A stretch of DNA of 64,000 nucleotides, taken from NCBI RefSeq assembly GCF_004214795.1, contig NZ_CP035928.1:1612001-1676000 (forward strand). The letters are read 5' to 3'. Positions within the stretch are counted from its first letter, which is position 1, and each line of letters starts with the position of its first letter. Positions 5,029-11,189 of this stretch are shown one piece after another. Both the position numbers and the translations under genes were made by a program. The DNA is from Malaciobacter pacificus. Lineage in GTDB: Bacteria > Campylobacterota > Campylobacteria > Campylobacterales > Arcobacteraceae. A model generated the notes under the pieces. The model saw nothing but the letters and a program-made list of their open reading frames with translations. It ran no database searches and had not been told where the DNA came from.

Positions 5029-5598
5029 TTATATTTTTTCATTTATTAGTTTTCCATCTTTTGTAAACGTATACAAATTACCAAATAAATATAATTCATA
5101 ATTAACTATATCTCCCCATATAAACAACTTACCATTATTAAATACATAGTCTTTAATAATTTCATTTGAAATAATATTTAATATTTCATTTCTACTTTTA
5201 AATAAATATTTCTCATCTTTATATAACGATATTCTTCTTTTTGATTCTAAAAAAGCCAATGCAAATATAGGTTCACTTTTTCTTTTAAAATTTGTATTTA
5301 CAAAAATATAAGCATCTTTAAATTTTTCTATTTCAATTTTTAGATTTGCGTAGTTATCAAGCTCTTTTTGAATTTGTGTATCATCAATTTCAAGCGCTTT
5401 ACAAAGTTTAATCAAAAACTCTTCGGCATTATTAACTAAGTCATAAAATCCACTATTTAGCCACCCATAAATAGTTTCTGTTTTTAGAAATTTATTAAGT
5501 GATTTTTCTAATTTTTTTGTTGATTGATAATCTAACTTTTGTTTTAAATCTTCAATTGAAGCATCTTTGATTTTTTGGTTTAGTATTTCTTTTAGCAT
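5029..5598 (-). CDS. Hypothetical protein, 189 aa, operator-linked
   Basis: The 189-aa product (MLKEILNQKIKDASIEDLKQKL...) is not recognised. The first 80 residues are helical and contain TETIYGWLNSGFYDL followed by LIKLCKALEIDD, which looks loosely like a small DNA-binding or adaptor helix bundle. The C-terminal part is a beta-rich stretch ending WGDIVNYELYLFGNLYTFTKDG. There is no signal peptide or membrane segment. An AAAGGA ribosome site precedes the ATG. It lies between the AAA+ ATPase and the 147-aa gene and has its own copy of the shared operator. It could be the regulator of the set, but that is only inference. Confidence 0.7.
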   Translation of the reverse strand: MLKEILNQKIKDASIEDLKQKLDYQSTKKLEKSLNKFLKTETIYGWLNSGFYDLVNNAEEFLIKLCKALEIDDTQIQKELDNYANLKIEIEKFKDAYIFVNTNFKRKSEPIFALAFLESKRRISLYKDEKYLFKSRNEILNIISNEIIKDYVFNNGKLFIWGDIVNYELYLFGNLYTFTKDGKLINEKI

Positions 5599-5656
5599 TT
5601 TATTATCCTTTGTTTTTTAAAGCAGTCGATACATTGTTTACTGCTTTTATGTAGTT

Positions 5657-5690
5657 ATTATAATCATCTAAGTAGACAAAAAGTTGTCTA
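5657..5690 (-). promoter_or_regulatory. Palindromic operator-promoter of the 189-aa gene (site 3 of 4)
   Basis: This is the best copy: an exact palindrome TAGACA-N6-TGTCTA (5673-5690), extended to 10 bp per arm at 5670-5693. A 10-bp spacer and TATAAT (5657-5662) follow on the reverse strand. It overlaps the stop codon of the AAA+ gene, so the same inverted repeat could also act as a weak terminator, but the -10 box at fixed distance favours a promoter-operator. Confidence 0.75.
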
Positions 5691-5691
5691 C

Positions 5692-7773
5692 TTAAATAAA
5701 CCCCATTGTTTTTTCATTATTTACTTGTTTAACTTCTACTTCTTCTTTTAATCTATTATAAAAATCATTTGAGTTTTTTATAGGCATAAATCTATTTTGT
5801 CTAACTACTGCTGCAAAATCACCTGGTGTTAAGCAACTTAAACTTTTTATTTGGTTTTTAGATTTTTCATAATCTTTAATATTTAAATTTTTGCATTCAC
5901 TCTCAAACAGTTCCCAAGCTTGTTGTGATTTTAAATAATCAAATTCAAGTTTTAAATCAAATCTTCTTAAACTTGCTTTATCTAGATTATTCATAAGATT
6001 AGTAGTTGCAATAAAAATACCATCAAAGTTTTCCATTTGAATAAGCATTTCATTTACTTGTGTAACTTCCCAAGATTTTGAAGCATTTTCTCTGCTACTT
6101 AAAAAACTATCAACTTCATCAAATACAAGAATTCCATCCTCTTCTTTTGCTTCTTTAAATGCATTTGCGATATTTTTTTCAGTTCCACCAACCCACATAG
6201 ACATTAAATCACTTCCTTTTTTTAAAATAAGTGGTTTATCCAAAAAATCTGCAATATATTTACCATAAGCACTTTTTCCAGTTCCTGCTGGCCCATACAA
6301 ACATATTCTTGCATTTTGGTTTTCTTTTATTCCTGATGCTAAACTATTTAAATCAATATTACAATTTATATATGAAGGATCATAAGTTTTAGGTAATTTA
6401 ATTAAACTATCCTCTTTTTTATAATCATGTCCTTGTGCTTTTAGGGTATTTTGTATAATCATTTCAAAGGCTTTGTCTTTATCTTTTGTATTTATATTTG
6501 ATATTACTTTTGCTGCTCTACTAACTAATGCAGGAGCTATTTTTTCATTTTTTGATAAAGAGGTAATTGTATCTTCACTTATTAAGTTTTGGCTATATTT
6601 ATTTATAATCTCTTTTCTTTTTGACTTAAGTGGAATTGGAACTTCTAAGCTTAAATCAAATCTTCTAATAATGGCATCATCAATACTATTTGCATCATTT
6701 GTAATCCAAATAGTAGGAATGTCATTGTTTTCTAAAGTTCTATTTATCCAGGCTTTATTTTTTTGTCTACTATCAAAAATATCACCTGAATTAAATATAT
6801 CTTCAACTTCATCAAACATAATTAGTGCATTTTTATTTGATAAAAGTGATTGTGCAAATTTAAATGCTCTAAGTCTTTTTGTTCCTTCAATTGGTTCATC
6901 ATCTTCATCACAATATGAGATTTCATATAAGGCCGATTTTAACTCATTTGAAATAGCTTTTGCTAATTCAGTTTTACCAGTTCCTGGGATTCCATAAAGA
7001 AGAACATTTACTCCTTTATCACCTGATATTAAAGCATTATTTAAATAAGGTACTAAAATATTTAAATCATTGTTTATATGTTCAAAATCATTTAAACAAA
7101 GATCTGTTTCATTGCATCTATAAATTACCTCTTTTAAAATAGATTCCATATCTTGATTACAAGACAACATATTTTGAGCAAATAAATCTGTAATAAATTC
7201 TAAATTATCTTCTAAACAACCACTATATTTTGTGTCAAGTGTTAAAAGTGATGATTTAACTAATCTTGATTTTGAAGAGAAAATTTTATTTATTTCATTT
7301 ATAGGAATATTTAAAATAACTGCTAAAGCTCTTTTAGTTTGTCCTGAATTTAGATTTCTACCTAAAAATCCCATACATTCTTTTAAAATATCATATTGAT
7401 TTAATAAAATAGCAAACTCTAAGATATTAGTTTCATTGTTGTTTAGTTGAGCAATATTTGAAATATTTTTAAGATTTGTTTTTAAAGTTTTTATATTTGA
7501 AAATCTAACTCTATTCTCTAATTTTATTAGTTTGTTTTTTAAAAAAGATATGACATTTTCTCTAGTATTTTCTTCATTTAAAAAAGACTCTAATCCTAAA
7601 AAATAGGCTAAATTTTCTTCTCTTATATCTCCATCTTTGTCGATGAATTCATTTATAGTATTTAATTTAAAAAGAACTCTTAACATCCAAAGTGAAAACT
7701 TATCAACTAACTCTTTTTCAACTAAATTCTCAATATCAAAACTTGAAATATTTTTAGATCTTCTACTCATCAT
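5692..7773 (-). CDS. Double AAA+ ATPase, operator-linked
   Basis: This 693-aa protein has two AAA+ modules. The first has Walker A GIPGTGKTELAKAI near residue 258, Walker B ALIMFDEVEDIF near 314, and IIRRFDLSLEVPIP as the arginine-finger/sensor region. The second has Walker A GPAGTGKSAYGKYI near 493, Walker B ILVFDEVDSFLSSREN near 546, and ASLRRFDLKLEF. The first 250 residues are helical and unassigned. Such proteins remodel other proteins or complexes using ATP, but the substrate is unknown. The start is one of two adjacent ATG codons behind AAAGGA. The 1.3-7.8 kb zone is flanked by IS debris and looks acquired. The gene shares its promoter design with three neighbours. Confidence 0.85.
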   Translation of the reverse strand: MMSRRSKNISSFDIENLVEKELVDKFSLWMLRVLFKLNTINEFIDKDGDIREENLAYFLGLESFLNEENTRENVISFLKNKLIKLENRVRFSNIKTLKTNLKNISNIAQLNNNETNILEFAILLNQYDILKECMGFLGRNLNSGQTKRALAVILNIPINEINKIFSSKSRLVKSSLLTLDTKYSGCLEDNLEFITDLFAQNMLSCNQDMESILKEVIYRCNETDLCLNDFEHINNDLNILVPYLNNALISGDKGVNVLLYGIPGTGKTELAKAISNELKSALYEISYCDEDDEPIEGTKRLRAFKFAQSLLSNKNALIMFDEVEDIFNSGDIFDSRQKNKAWINRTLENNDIPTIWITNDANSIDDAIIRRFDLSLEVPIPLKSKRKEIINKYSQNLISEDTITSLSKNEKIAPALVSRAAKVISNINTKDKDKAFEMIIQNTLKAQGHDYKKEDSLIKLPKTYDPSYINCNIDLNSLASGIKENQNARICLYGPAGTGKSAYGKYIADFLDKPLILKKGSDLMSMWVGGTEKNIANAFKEAKEEDGILVFDEVDSFLSSRENASKSWEVTQVNEMLIQMENFDGIFIATTNLMNNLDKASLRRFDLKLEFDYLKSQQAWELFESECKNLNIKDYEKSKNQIKSLSCLTPGDFAAVVRQNRFMPIKNSNDFYNRLKEEVEVKQVNNEKTMGFI

Positions 7774-8740: not shown

Positions 8741-9961
8741 ATGGTTACAAGAGAAGACTTTATATTTTTAAATAAAAATTTTTACACTCATTGTAAGGCA
8801 ACAGCAAGAATATTCAATCTTCTAACTGTTCCTACAATAATTTTTGCCTTAGTAATACTTGGATATTTTGGTTATTTTCCTCTAAAAGTTGAACTACATA
8901 GTGTTGTTTTAATTGGTTTTATTTATTTTATATACCTATTTTTTGTAAGACATAATGCATATTATGTATCTTGTAAATTTAAAGCACAATATAAACTTTT
9001 AGTTGAACATTTAAAAAACTATATAAATGACAATCTTCTTACAATTGGTGATACAACTAAAGCAAATGGTAGTGTTGATGATTTTTTAAAAGAGTTCACA
9101 AGTAATATTAGAAATACAAACTTTTCATCAATCGCCTCAGGTGTTTTCCCTACTCTTGGAATTTTAGGTACTTTTATATCAATTGCATTTAGTATGCCTG
9201 ATTTCAGCTCTGGTACATCAAGTGCACTAGAAAAAGAGATTACCGTACTTTTAGGTGGTGTTGGTACTGCTTTTTATGTATCTATTTATGGTATTTTTCT
9301 TTCACTTTGGTGGATATTTTTTGAAAAGATTGGAATGAGTAGATTCGAACATGATACTTTTATTATCAAAGAGAATACAAAATCTTTCTTTTGGACAAAA
9401 CTTGATATTGAATCTATTCACTTACAAAGTAGCATGAAAAACTTTGAAAAAATGAGTCAATTATTTGAACAAATAACATCAACAAACTTATTAAATACAA
9501 TAAATACTTCTTTAGAAAAAAGAGCACAAATTGTTGAGTCAATTATAAAAGAAGAAGAGTTATTAGTTCATAATATAAAAATAAATATTGAAAACTTTGA
9601 AAAACTTTTTGACCAAATAAAACTTATGACTTTAAATATTGAAAATAATATGTCTAAGTTCACAGAACAAAAAGATGATTATGAAAATAGTACAAAAATA
9701 TTAAGTGAAAATATTGAAAGTCTAAACTCTACTTTAAGTAACTTAAATTCAACTAATGTTCAAGAAATCTATTCAAGTGTTATTAAAAATATTAACACTA
9801 TGAAAAATGAAACAGATAAAATTAGATGGAAATTTACTCAAGATTTAGATGATTATGATTCAAAATTTAGTGAAAAACTAAAAAACTCACTAGAAGCTAT
9901 AGATAATCAAACAGTTAAAATCATTGAAGATTTAAAAGAGTTTAAAGAGATCTCAAAATAG
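8741..9961 (+). CDS. MotA/TolQ/ExbB-family proton-channel protein (ZorA-like)
   Basis: The 406-aa protein has two N-terminal membrane helices (about residues 20-45 and 50-70). Two more follow in FPTLGILGTFISIAF (near 140) and LLGGVGTAFYVSIYGIFLS (near 170), the MotA/TolQ/ExbB channel signature. The last 170 residues form a long soluble coiled coil. It is followed after 2 bp by an OmpA/MotB-type partner, so the two should form a stator-like ion-driven complex. The tail recalls ZorA of Zorya anti-phage systems, but no ZorC/ZorD genes are here and the tail is short. Flagellar MotA, TolQ or a housekeeping pair are less likely given the tail. The function is unknown. Confidence 0.8.
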   Translation: MVTREDFIFLNKNFYTHCKATARIFNLLTVPTIIFALVILGYFGYFPLKVELHSVVLIGFIYFIYLFFVRHNAYYVSCKFKAQYKLLVEHLKNYINDNLLTIGDTTKANGSVDDFLKEFTSNIRNTNFSSIASGVFPTLGILGTFISIAFSMPDFSSGTSSALEKEITVLLGGVGTAFYVSIYGIFLSLWWIFFEKIGMSRFEHDTFIIKENTKSFFWTKLDIESIHLQSSMKNFEKMSQLFEQITSTNLLNTINTSLEKRAQIVESIIKEEELLVHNIKINIENFEKLFDQIKLMTLNIENNMSKFTEQKDDYENSTKILSENIESLNSTLSNLNSTNVQEIYSSVIKNINTMKNETDKIRWKFTQDLDDYDSKFSEKLKNSLEAIDNQTVKIIEDLKEFKEISK

Positions 9962-9963
9962 CC

Positions 9964-11073
9964 ATGTACAATAATAACAAAGAAAACAACGAAAACTTCT
10001 GGATATCTTATGCAGATTTAATGGCTGGATTACTATTTGTTTTTATACTTGTAATTGGAGCTATTATTATAAAATATCTCTTTACTCAAACTGATTTACA
10101 AGCTATTAAAACAGATTTAGAAAAAGAGAAAATTGCTTTAAATATGAGTGAAGAGGAGTTAAAAAATAGAAAAACTCAATTAGAAGAAATAAATAAAAAA
10201 CTCAACTCAACACTAGAAGAGAATACTAGACTTGCATTTGATTTAGCTAGGTCTCAAAAATTATATGAACAAATAAAAACAAGTGAAGGTAATTTAAAAG
10301 TTTCACTTGATGAAGCACTAAAACAAGTAAGTTTAACAAATGAAGAAGTAGAAAAATTAAAAGCTTTACTTTTAGATTATGAATTAAAACTAAAAAATGA
10401 AACTTCACAAAAAGATGAACTTATAGTAAAACTTGATGAAAAAAACAATTTTATAAAACTAAAAGATGATGAGTTATCTCTACTTCAAGATAAACTCTTA
10501 GAACAATTAAAAATCCATCAAAAACTTGTAGAAGATTTTGATATAACAAAAACAAAAATCAAGCATCTTACAGGTATTAAATTAACTGTTATTTCAAAAT
10601 TAAAAGAGAAACTTGGTAATTCAATAGATATTGATGCTAAAAGTGGTGCGATAAAATTCTCTTCTAATATTTTATTTGGACAAGGTGAATACAAACTAAA
10701 AGAGGATTCAAAACAAGAATTAAAAAATATTTTAAAAAACTATATGTCTGCACTTTTTGATAATGAAGATATAAAAAAGTATATTGATAGTATTACAATA
10801 GAAGGTCATACTAATAGTGATGGAACTTATCTTGCAAACTTAGAGCTTTCTCAACAAAGAGCTTTAGAGGTTATGAAATTTTTGTATGAGTCAAATATCG
10901 TAGACAATGAGTTACTTACAAAATATGTTAGTGCAAGTGGTAGGTCTTATTCTGATATGATTTTACAAAATGGAATAGAAGATAAAAATGCTTCAAGAAG
11001 AATTGAAATCAAATTTAGAATTAAAAATGAAACAGCTATTAAAGAGCTTCAAAACTATTTGGAAAAGCAATGA
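9964..11073 (+). CDS. OmpA/MotB-family peptidoglycan-binding partner (ZorB-like)
   Basis: The 369-aa protein has a short N-terminus with FWISYADLMAGLLFVFILV. Here the Asp in YADLMAG is the expected ion-binding residue at the start of the single membrane helix (about 15-38). A long charged coiled coil follows (about 45-210). The C-terminal OmpA domain has IEGHTNSDGTYLANLELSQQRA and ASRRIEIKF, the peptidoglycan-binding pattern. It starts 2 bp after the channel gene stops, so the two are translated together. The coiled coil would project the OmpA domain to the cell wall. The channel plus OmpA arrangement matches MotAB, TolQR and ZorAB. Confidence 0.85.
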   Translation: MYNNNKENNENFWISYADLMAGLLFVFILVIGAIIIKYLFTQTDLQAIKTDLEKEKIALNMSEEELKNRKTQLEEINKKLNSTLEENTRLAFDLARSQKLYEQIKTSEGNLKVSLDEALKQVSLTNEEVEKLKALLLDYELKLKNETSQKDELIVKLDEKNNFIKLKDDELSLLQDKLLEQLKIHQKLVEDFDITKTKIKHLTGIKLTVISKLKEKLGNSIDIDAKSGAIKFSSNILFGQGEYKLKEDSKQELKNILKNYMSALFDNEDIKKYIDSITIEGHTNSDGTYLANLELSQQRALEVMKFLYESNIVDNELLTKYVSASGRSYSDMILQNGIEDKNASRRIEIKFRIKNETAIKELQNYLEKQ

Positions 11074-11189
11074 AAAATTATCTTTATGAGCCAAAAAACT
11101 TAAAAAACTTAGCTAAAGAGATAGAAAAAAAGCTAGAAGAGAAGAAAAACTCTAGCTTTTTTGTAAAAATCAAAAACTTATTTAAGTAA
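11070..11189 (+). CDS. Possible 39-aa basic peptide coupled to the motor pair
   Basis: A short ORF starts with an ATGA overlap on the stop of the OmpA-like gene (MKNYLYEPKNLKNLAKEIEKKLEEKK...). It is lysine-rich, helical and ends FFVKIKNLFK, which could be an amphipathic membrane-binding tail. Against it, a terminator-like hairpin followed by a T run (11126-11162) lies inside it, and its end overlaps the convergent sugar dehydrogenase gene by 12 bp. It may be a real coupled microprotein or chance. Confidence 0.4.
   Translation: MKNYLYEPKNLKNLAKEIEKKLEEKKNSSFFVKIKNLFK
11126..11162 (+). terminator. Rho-independent terminator-like hairpin after the motor pair
   Basis: AAAGCTAG...GAG pairs with CTCTAGCTTT across an A-rich loop and is followed by a T run (TTTTTTG). 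It would end the sfsA/motor transcript. It sits within the possible 39-aa ORF. Confidence 0.5.

What the first reader, a model, noticed from the sequence alone, without database searches (positions are those of the whole stretch)
8741..11189. ZorA/ZorB-like motor pair without ZorC/ZorD
A four-helix MotA/ExbB protein with a long coiled-coil tail and an OmpA/MotB partner with a long coiled coil are translationally coupled, with a possible 39-aa third ORF in ATGA overlap. This is the membrane motor half of Zorya, but no nuclease or helicase effector is present. It may be a relative with another output, or a housekeeping envelope motor of this lineage.
Basis: partly seen in the sequence, partly recalled or inferred. 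Interest (0 to 1): 0.55.

Follow-up and report, generated by a model that had tools for sequence, protein, structure and literature searches.

The report
Campylobacterales ZorAB-like motor with microprotein
Many relatives of Arcobacter and Campylobacter carry an uncharacterised membrane rotary-motor gene pair that resembles the engine of a phage-defence system but has no known defence weapon beside it, and in most of the loci read it comes with a third, easily overlooked gene for a tiny protein of about 40 to 70 amino acids.

Summary
Window 8741-9961 (A, 406 aa) and 9964-11073 (B, 369 aa) form a MotA/ExbB plus MotB/OmpA pair, and the 39-aa ORF 11070-11189 is a real gene. A groups with ZorA, apart from the MotA, ExbB and TolQ of the same genome (100/99 support). 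No ZorC, ZorD or ZorE-like gene was found nearby, and no ZorD1 or ZorE2 in the genome.

It does not look like a sporadic defence island. A was found in 180 of 398 Campylobacterales genomes and 30 of 31 genomes of the neighbouring genus g2, usually once per genome, with stable neighbours within g2. Campylobacter-type genomes have it after an aldolase gene.

The third ORF is the new part. Clear homologues overlap or abut the end of B in 66 of 100 loci. A profile search of 398 genomes gave 82 hits at E<=1e-3; 79 lie just downstream of A or B. pN/pS is 0.32; no Pfam or NCBIfam family matched convincingly.

Best reading: a Campylobacterales envelope motor of ZorAB type with an ancestral third subunit, missing in Campylobacteraceae. 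Its output is unknown; defence is possible but less likely.

The parts
8741..9961 (+). A: MotA/ExbB/ZorA-type channel protein, 406 aa, with helical cytoplasmic tail
   Evidence: PF01618 2.2e-5; PADLOC ZorA2 4e-12, ZorA1 1.4e-11; profile vs PDB: ZorA 8vvn 2.5e-10, 8vvi 1.7e-9; tree
9170..9172 (+). Thr144 of A, in GILGTF; aligns with ZorA1 residue 147; presumed ion-ring residue
   Evidence: Invariant in 16 of 16 A proteins; phmmer match of residues 124-201 to 127-204 of ZorA, an offset of 3. A Ser/Thr ring is described in PMC11890865; the ZorA residue numbers T147/S184 are recalled
9281..9283 (+). Ser181 of A, in FYxSI; aligns with ZorA1 residue 184; presumed ion-ring residue
   Evidence: Invariant in 16 of 16
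9329..9958 (+). Cytoplasmic tail of A, about 210 aa, with C-terminal tip motif SLxxID..T..II..L
   Evidence: Tail position; tip seen in most lineages, missing in the divergent Arcobacteraceae clade (read by eye)
9964..11073 (+). B: MotB/ZorB-type protein, one TM helix, long linker, OmpA domain, 369 aa
   Evidence: PF00691 1.8e-12; PADLOC ZorB1 6.8e-56 over residues 189-368; PDB profile: ZorB 8qyd_F 8.3e-26
10015..10017 (+). Asp18 of B (FWISYADLMAG), presumed ion-binding residue
   Evidence: At least 90% of 16; replaced by Asn only in L005 among the 20 Campylobacterales B sequences printed
10075..10578 (+). Long, length-variable periplasmic linker of B (coiled coil by look of the sequence; no coiled-coil program run)
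   Evidence: Asp to OmpA GHT motif: 261 residues here, 209-373 in 20 Campylobacterales B, 103-114 in six ZorB
10672..10929 (+). OmpA peptidoglycan-binding domain of B (residues 237-322)
   Evidence: PF00691; EG.T...G...NL.LS..RA and SRRIEIK motifs conserved
11070..11189 (+). C: 39-aa microprotein overlapping the B stop (ATGA); N-terminal YxPxxLxxL helix and C-terminal basic, aromatic helix
   Evidence: Homologues in other loci; linkage; pN/pS 0.32; helices 8-26 and 29-38, mean pLDDT 80

Best explanation
This is an envelope motor of the ZorAB branch of the 5:2 ion-driven machines, inherited mainly vertically within Campylobacterales, with a third subunit C. Inferred working: five A subunits surround the transmembrane helices of a B dimer. 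B is fixed to peptidoglycan by its OmpA domain on a long periplasmic linker. Ions pass Asp18 of B and the Thr144/Ser181 ring of A, so the A pentamer and its roughly 210-residue cytoplasmic tail turn or are strained relative to the wall. C is made directly after B, probably by coupled translation; it most likely docks through its YxPxxLxxL helix on A (tail tip or base) and touches the inner membrane with its basic, aromatic C-terminal helix, acting as gate, latch or adaptor. The output is most likely envelope or peptidoglycan mechanics or signalling, not DNA cleavage. Shown: gene anatomy, overlap of C with B, conserved ion and peptidoglycan-binding residues, ZorA kinship, distribution, linkage of C and selection on it. 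Inferred: stoichiometry, rotation, docking of C, output.
For: Kinship. Ion-path residues invariant or nearly so. Distribution: 54 of 104 family genomes, 180 of 398 order genomes, 147 of 298 genomes of a phylum draw; 30 of 31 in genus g2. Stable context in g2: flanking genes n310, n325 and n297 in 10 of 11 loci; an L,D-transpeptidase gene beside A and divergent from it in 11 of 11 (positions; YkuD by Pfam for three). Aldolase directly upstream of A in the two Campylobacter-type loci tested by Pfam, and an ORF of 354-362 aa in that place in the other nine. The genome has separate MotAB, TolQR and three ExbBD pairs (named by eye). C: 66 clear of 100 loci; 79 of 82 profile hits next to A or B; pN/pS 0.32 over 43 pairs, which share sequences and are not independent, with substitutions 221/174/430 by codon position; 4 changes of C state on a 69-row A tree against a shuffled mean of 20.7.
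Against: No function is shown. The pair is patchy between families of the order, and in g2 A diverges about three times more than n325 (mean distance 0.311 against 0.109) and 1.4 times more than n310, which would also suit a defence gene. C is missing in 28 of 100 loci, including 11 of 11 Campylobacteraceae-type loci, so AB can exist without C. The L,D-transpeptidase neighbour was found only in g2. The AlphaFold model of A was poor (pLDDT 49.5), so the fold was not compared. The B tree was unresolved. Pairwise distances of A in g2 correlate with n325 (Spearman 0.78) but weakly or not with five other neighbours (-0.09 to 0.41), so strict vertical inheritance is not proven.
Confidence: 0.6

Rival explanations
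1. A stripped-down anti-phage system: AB senses envelope damage by phage, as in Zorya, and signals to an unlinked or unrecognised effector, with C as messenger.
For: Closest known relatives are ZorA/ZorB; patchy between families; A diverges fast.
Against: No ZorC/D/E-like gene in the neighbourhoods tested and no ZorD1 or ZorE2 in the genome (other neighbours were not all annotated, so an unknown effector is not excluded). Usually single copy; present in 30 of 31 g2 genomes with fixed neighbours; scores far below the NCBIfam Zorya cut-offs.
Confidence: 0.2
2. An auxiliary flagellar or surface-motility stator.
For: MotA/MotB architecture with peptidoglycan anchor.
Against: A separate MotAB is in the same genome, beside genes that look flagellar by eye; A and ZorA are set apart from MotA/ExbB/TolQ with 100/99 support.
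Confidence: 0.07
3. C is not a protein but a by-product of the end of B (chance ORF or regulatory RNA); only AB matters.
For: Very short; absent in 28 of 100 loci; the helical moment of the C-terminal end exceeds shuffles clearly in only some members.
Against: pN/pS 0.32 with an excess of third-position changes, one shared peptide motif across several families, a start codon within -53 to +8 nt of the B stop in 66 loci, most often at -4 (22 of 66). Nearly all of C lies beyond the end of B, so its conservation is not a carry-over from B.
Confidence: 0.05

Closest known systems
Zorya types I and II, ZorA/ZorB core (PDB 8qyd, 8vvn, 8vvi; PMC11890865)
   Same: B helix with ion Asp (FWISYADLM also in ZorB1), Ser/Thr in the channel, OmpA domain, long cytoplasmic A tail, A-B gene order; A groups with ZorA
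   Different: No ZorC/D/E found; near-core in g2; B linker 261 residues against 103-114; A shorter than ZorA1 (406 against 729 aa); has a third microprotein gene; one clade on a long branch
Flagellar stator MotAB (own genome L115)
   Same: MotA-type channel, MotB Asp
   Different: Separate gene pair in the same genome; outside the A+ZorA group
TolQR and ExbBD (own genome L113, L114, L116, L117)
   Same: Same ion-channel superfamily (PF01618)
   Different: Short A without long tail and short B of 127-129 aa; separate in the tree
PRK09039-type 'peptidoglycan-binding' OmpA proteins (NCBIfam NF006543)
   Same: B matches nearly end to end (residues 5-351, 1.7e-12)
   Different: 47.8 bits against a cut-off of 305; partner genes not examined here

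Membership tests
Zorya anti-phage system | ZorA: MotA/ExbB channel with long helical cytoplasmic tail | tested here: met
   but 29.3 bits or less against NCBIfam ZorA cut-offs of 100-750
Zorya anti-phage system | ZorB: TM helix with ion Asp plus OmpA peptidoglycan-binding domain | tested here: met
   (sequence only; binding not tested)
Zorya anti-phage system | Effector genes zorC+zorD or zorE next to zorAB | tested here: not met
   No tblastn hit in window and the relative loci held then (controls work); own genome none for ZorD1 and ZorE2
Zorya anti-phage system | Scores over curated ZorA1/ZorA2/ZorB1/ZorB2 cut-offs | tested here: not met
   ZorB1 80 bits against 400; ZorA2 26.1 against 700
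Zorya anti-phage system | Anti-phage activity | not testable with these tools
   Needs plaque assays
5:2 ion-driven motor superfamily | Conserved B Asp facing Ser/Thr ring of A | tested here: met
   Residues conserved (exception L005 with Asn); their facing is inferred from ZorAB
5:2 ion-driven motor superfamily | A5B2 stoichiometry and ion-driven rotation | not testable with these tools
   Needs cryo-EM and biophysics
Flagellar MotAB / Tol-Exb | Groups with MotA, TolQ or ExbB in phylogeny | tested here: not met
   separated, 100/99 support, with the MotA, TolQ and three ExbB of one genome as yardsticks

The most novel reading that the evidence does not exclude
Campylobacterales possess a previously unrecognised three-subunit rotary machine, A-B-C, in which a membrane-attached microprotein of about 40-70 aa couples or gates a peptidoglycan-anchored motor with a cytoplasmic rod; Zorya would be a sister branch that recruited DNA-cutting effectors onto this kind of engine.
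Probability: 0.4. Interest if true: 0.85.

Novelty: new variant of a known kind. Interest (0 to 1): 0.6.

Why it matters
ZorAB motors are known to me only as the engine of a phage-defence system. A relative without effector genes, near-core in some genera of Arcobacter- and Campylobacter-like bacteria, suggests that this kind of motor also does something else, and offers a natural comparison for asking what the cytoplasmic rod of ZorA transmits. The microprotein is a defined, deletable third part whose role can be tested directly. The Campylobacter pair (Cj0598/Cj0599 if my recalled numbering is right) would be a conserved, unstudied motor of a major food-borne pathogen: in the held papers cj0598 appears as a hypothetical protein (PMC5841378, one passage), and Cj0599 once, labelled 'major outer membrane protein' in a list of proteins identified by mass spectrometry (PMC2672935, one passage).

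Tried and rejected
Considered and rejected: sfsA-linked operon (sfsA is adjacent only in the window and L003 of 24 loci); flagellar or Tol stator; defence island. The upstream AAA ATPase (5692-7773, minus strand) could look like an effector, but no homologue showed up among the ORFs of the 23 relative loci, so it was left out of the system.

Led nowhere: AlphaFold of A with the four sequences that could be used gave pLDDT 49.5, so no fold search was run. The B tree was unresolved, and the clade test after it failed for lack of rows. EH_Signature (PF15611) in the own genome gave nothing, but its control rang nowhere either, so it says nothing. Pfam and NCBIfam scans of 28 microproteins gave only scattered single hits, best E 0.005 and 0.007. 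The idea that C binds the tail-tip motif was only half supported: the Arcobacteraceae clade without C lacks the motif, but genus g39 and Campylobacter keep it in whole or part without C. Helical-moment tests of the C-terminal end were mixed: 2 of 8 peptides at 0.002, others 0.021 to 0.475. Literature: searches found no paper on this pair's function or on the microprotein; the main text of a C. jejuni small-protein census (PMC11955535) does not mention Cj0598 or Cj0599; passages of PMC12505986 call ZorAB a remote homologue left out of its trees; most subscription papers are not held.

Reading choices: of 100 loci with B I counted 66 as clear C homologues, 6 as positional look-alikes without the Pro motif (L100, L130, L131, L135, L152, L153) and 28 without C; in 6 of these 28 an ORF was listed that I judged unrelated by eye (L049, L051, L136, L139, L140, L149); recount. 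Two loci without B (L101, L122) were dropped. In the tree five of the six look-alikes were scored as having C; scoring them as absent would add changes. Of 82 profile hits (E<=1e-3), 61 were placed; 5 by comparing the A places printed with the C places, by my own subtraction (G223, G263, G308, G253, G142); and 13 by reading the locus, where for G390 and the three contig-edge cases (G354, G215, G254) only B, not A, is on the stretch. The 3 exceptions are G172 and G387 (judged spurious: antisense to or inside other frames) and G113 (C without B). Weaker hits (E 0.001 to 0.05) were not used.

It also took as showing confinement to the order; that answer does not say how many genomes outside the order were drawn.

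Full report
What is there. The window is bases 1612001-1676000 of a single-contig 2.66-Mb genome. After sfsA come A (406 aa), B (369 aa, 2 nt later) and a 39-aa ORF starting in the stop of B as ATGA; a convergent glucose/sorbosone dehydrogenase gene follows. A has a Shine-Dalgarno-like AAGGA before its start (by eye). No intrinsic terminator was found, and promoter-like matches were not above chance.

Family. A scores as PF01618 and matches PADLOC ZorA models at 4e-12; B matches a PADLOC ZorB1 model at 6.8e-56 over its C-terminal half. Scores stay far under the NCBIfam Zorya cut-offs. With a 16-sequence profile, the only motor proteins of known structure matched by A at E<=0.01 are ZorA chains; two designed helical proteins also appear at 0.00075 and 0.0058, matched through the tail. 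That MotA, ExbB and TolQ structures exist is general knowledge. B matches ZorB best (8.3e-26), then MotB, Pal and OmpA-type domains. In a tree of the channel core (31 rows, 110 columns), 20 Campylobacterales A proteins form one clade (99/97) and, with six ZorA, are set apart from the MotA, TolQ and three ExbB of the same genome (100/99). The branch to the Campylobacterales clade is long (2.98 changes per column), and several ZorA rows are long too, so the exact position among ZorA is unsure. The B tree did not resolve.

Ion and wall residues. Thr144, Thr176 and Ser181 of A are invariant in 16 of 16. Asp18 of B is at 90% or more in 16; the exception is L005, a Campylobacter MAG with Asn. The EG.T...G and SRRIEIK motifs of the OmpA domain are conserved. 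In Zorya, the B Asp, peptidoglycan binding and the A tail are all needed for defence (PMC11890865, section 6 read in full).

Distribution. A is in 54 of 104 genomes of the family: 39 with a close form (clade A: the window's genus g1, 30 of 31 in g2, one in g14 and seven in g19) and 15 with a divergent form, 35-41% identical. In the order it is in 180 of 398 genomes and 29 of 87 genera at E<=1e-15, one match per genome except in G425 and G448. A phylum-wide draw gave 147 of 298, every listed match in the same family or order; how many genomes outside the order were drawn is not shown, so confinement to the order is not established. In g2 the genes n310, n325 and n297 stay beside it in 10 of 11 loci, and an L,D-transpeptidase gene lies beside A, divergent, in 11 of 11 (named YkuD by Pfam for three). 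In the 11 Campylobacter-type loci A is preceded by an ORF of 354-362 aa, a class II aldolase in the two tested, with a PPIase before it in the one tested; after B comes an ORF of 264-307 aa, of two tested one resembles a PLP enzyme, below the Pfam cut-off, and one has no hit. I recall this order as peb4-fba-cj0598-cj0599. Zorya effectors were not found nearby, but not all neighbours were annotated. This is the pattern of a lineage gene with losses rather than of a mobile defence island, though it is patchy between families, A diverges about three times more than n325, and distance correlations with other neighbours are weak.

The microprotein. In 32 of 32 clade A loci a 38-49-aa ORF sits at the B stop (further ones). 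More distant families carry recognisable relatives: an N-terminal [FY]xPxx[LI]-like motif followed by a predicted helix, a charged stretch, and a C-terminal basic, aromatic end (Pro invariant in the 28 aligned). Of 100 loci with B, 66 are clear (38-73 aa with the start chosen by the script), 6 are positional look-alikes and 28 lack it, including 11 of 11 Campylobacteraceae-type loci. A whole-genome profile search of 398 genomes gave 82 hits at E<=1e-3: 61 lie 974-1534 bp after A on the same strand, 5 more by position and 13 more directly after B, so 79 of 82. Two exceptions are judged spurious; the third, G113, has C apart from B. The model was built from 28 sequences taken from such loci, so hits to those are expected by construction; the linkage of the rest is not. 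Among close pairs pN/pS is 0.32, with substitutions 221/174/430 at codon positions 1/2/3. AlphaFold gives two helices, 8-26 and 29-38, at mean pLDDT 80 from three sequences. C state needs 4 changes on a 69-row A tree, against 20.7 for shuffled labels: two absent clades (divergent Arcobacteraceae; Campylobacteraceae with g39) and two single rows, one of them G113, which has C elsewhere. C was therefore probably present in the common ancestor.

Mechanism. By analogy with ZorAB and MotAB, B is the peptidoglycan-bound axle and A the rotor with a cytoplasmic rod; here the B linker is longer (261 residues from Asp to the OmpA motif, 209-373 in 20 Campylobacterales B, against 103-114 in six ZorB) and A is shorter than ZorA1. 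C is well placed, by its overlap with B, to be made at a fixed ratio to B. Its size and ends suggest a peripheral inner-membrane adaptor or gate. The tail tip of A has a conserved motif that the C-less divergent Arcobacteraceae clade lacks, but other C-less groups keep it in whole or part, so the docking site is open. The neighbouring L,D-transpeptidase in g2 is a weak hint at wall biology.

Verdict. Not a member of Zorya: the effector criterion was tested and not met. It plausibly works like the ZorAB engine. I rate it a new variant of a known kind, with the microprotein as the new element.

Noticed in passing
window 5029-7773, minus strand: An ATPase with two AAA stretches (693 aa; PADLOC IetA 2.2e-42, best stretch 485-665) with a 189-aa ORF of no family beside it; possibly an uncharacterised defence or quality-control pair. 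No homologue beside sfsA in the near relative L003.
   Followed up: partly
L203 1658-3845 (G113 contig C127): A C-type microprotein without B, about 60 bp after an ATPase gene and a 293-aa ORF that look by eye like a Septu PtuA/PtuB pair, while A and B sit on another contig.
   Followed up: partly
L005 4059-5153: B protein of a Campylobacter MAG with Asn in place of the ion-binding Asp (FWISYANLM): a possibly ion-dead motor, or a sequencing error.
   Followed up: no
L149 (G448): A 592-aa A match with a 251-aa B in a genome with two A matches; proportions nearer to Zorya type I.
   Followed up: no
L114 1069-2847 (own genome): An ExbBD pair is divergent to an ORF that looks by eye like the PLP-type enzyme after B in Campylobacter-type loci.
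   Followed up: no
family f1, genera g7, g10, g15, g18, part of g19: A second, divergent form of AB (35-41% identity in A) without C and without the tail-tip motif in the loci read; within g19 some genomes carry one form and others the other, which hints at replacement or transfer.
   Followed up: partly
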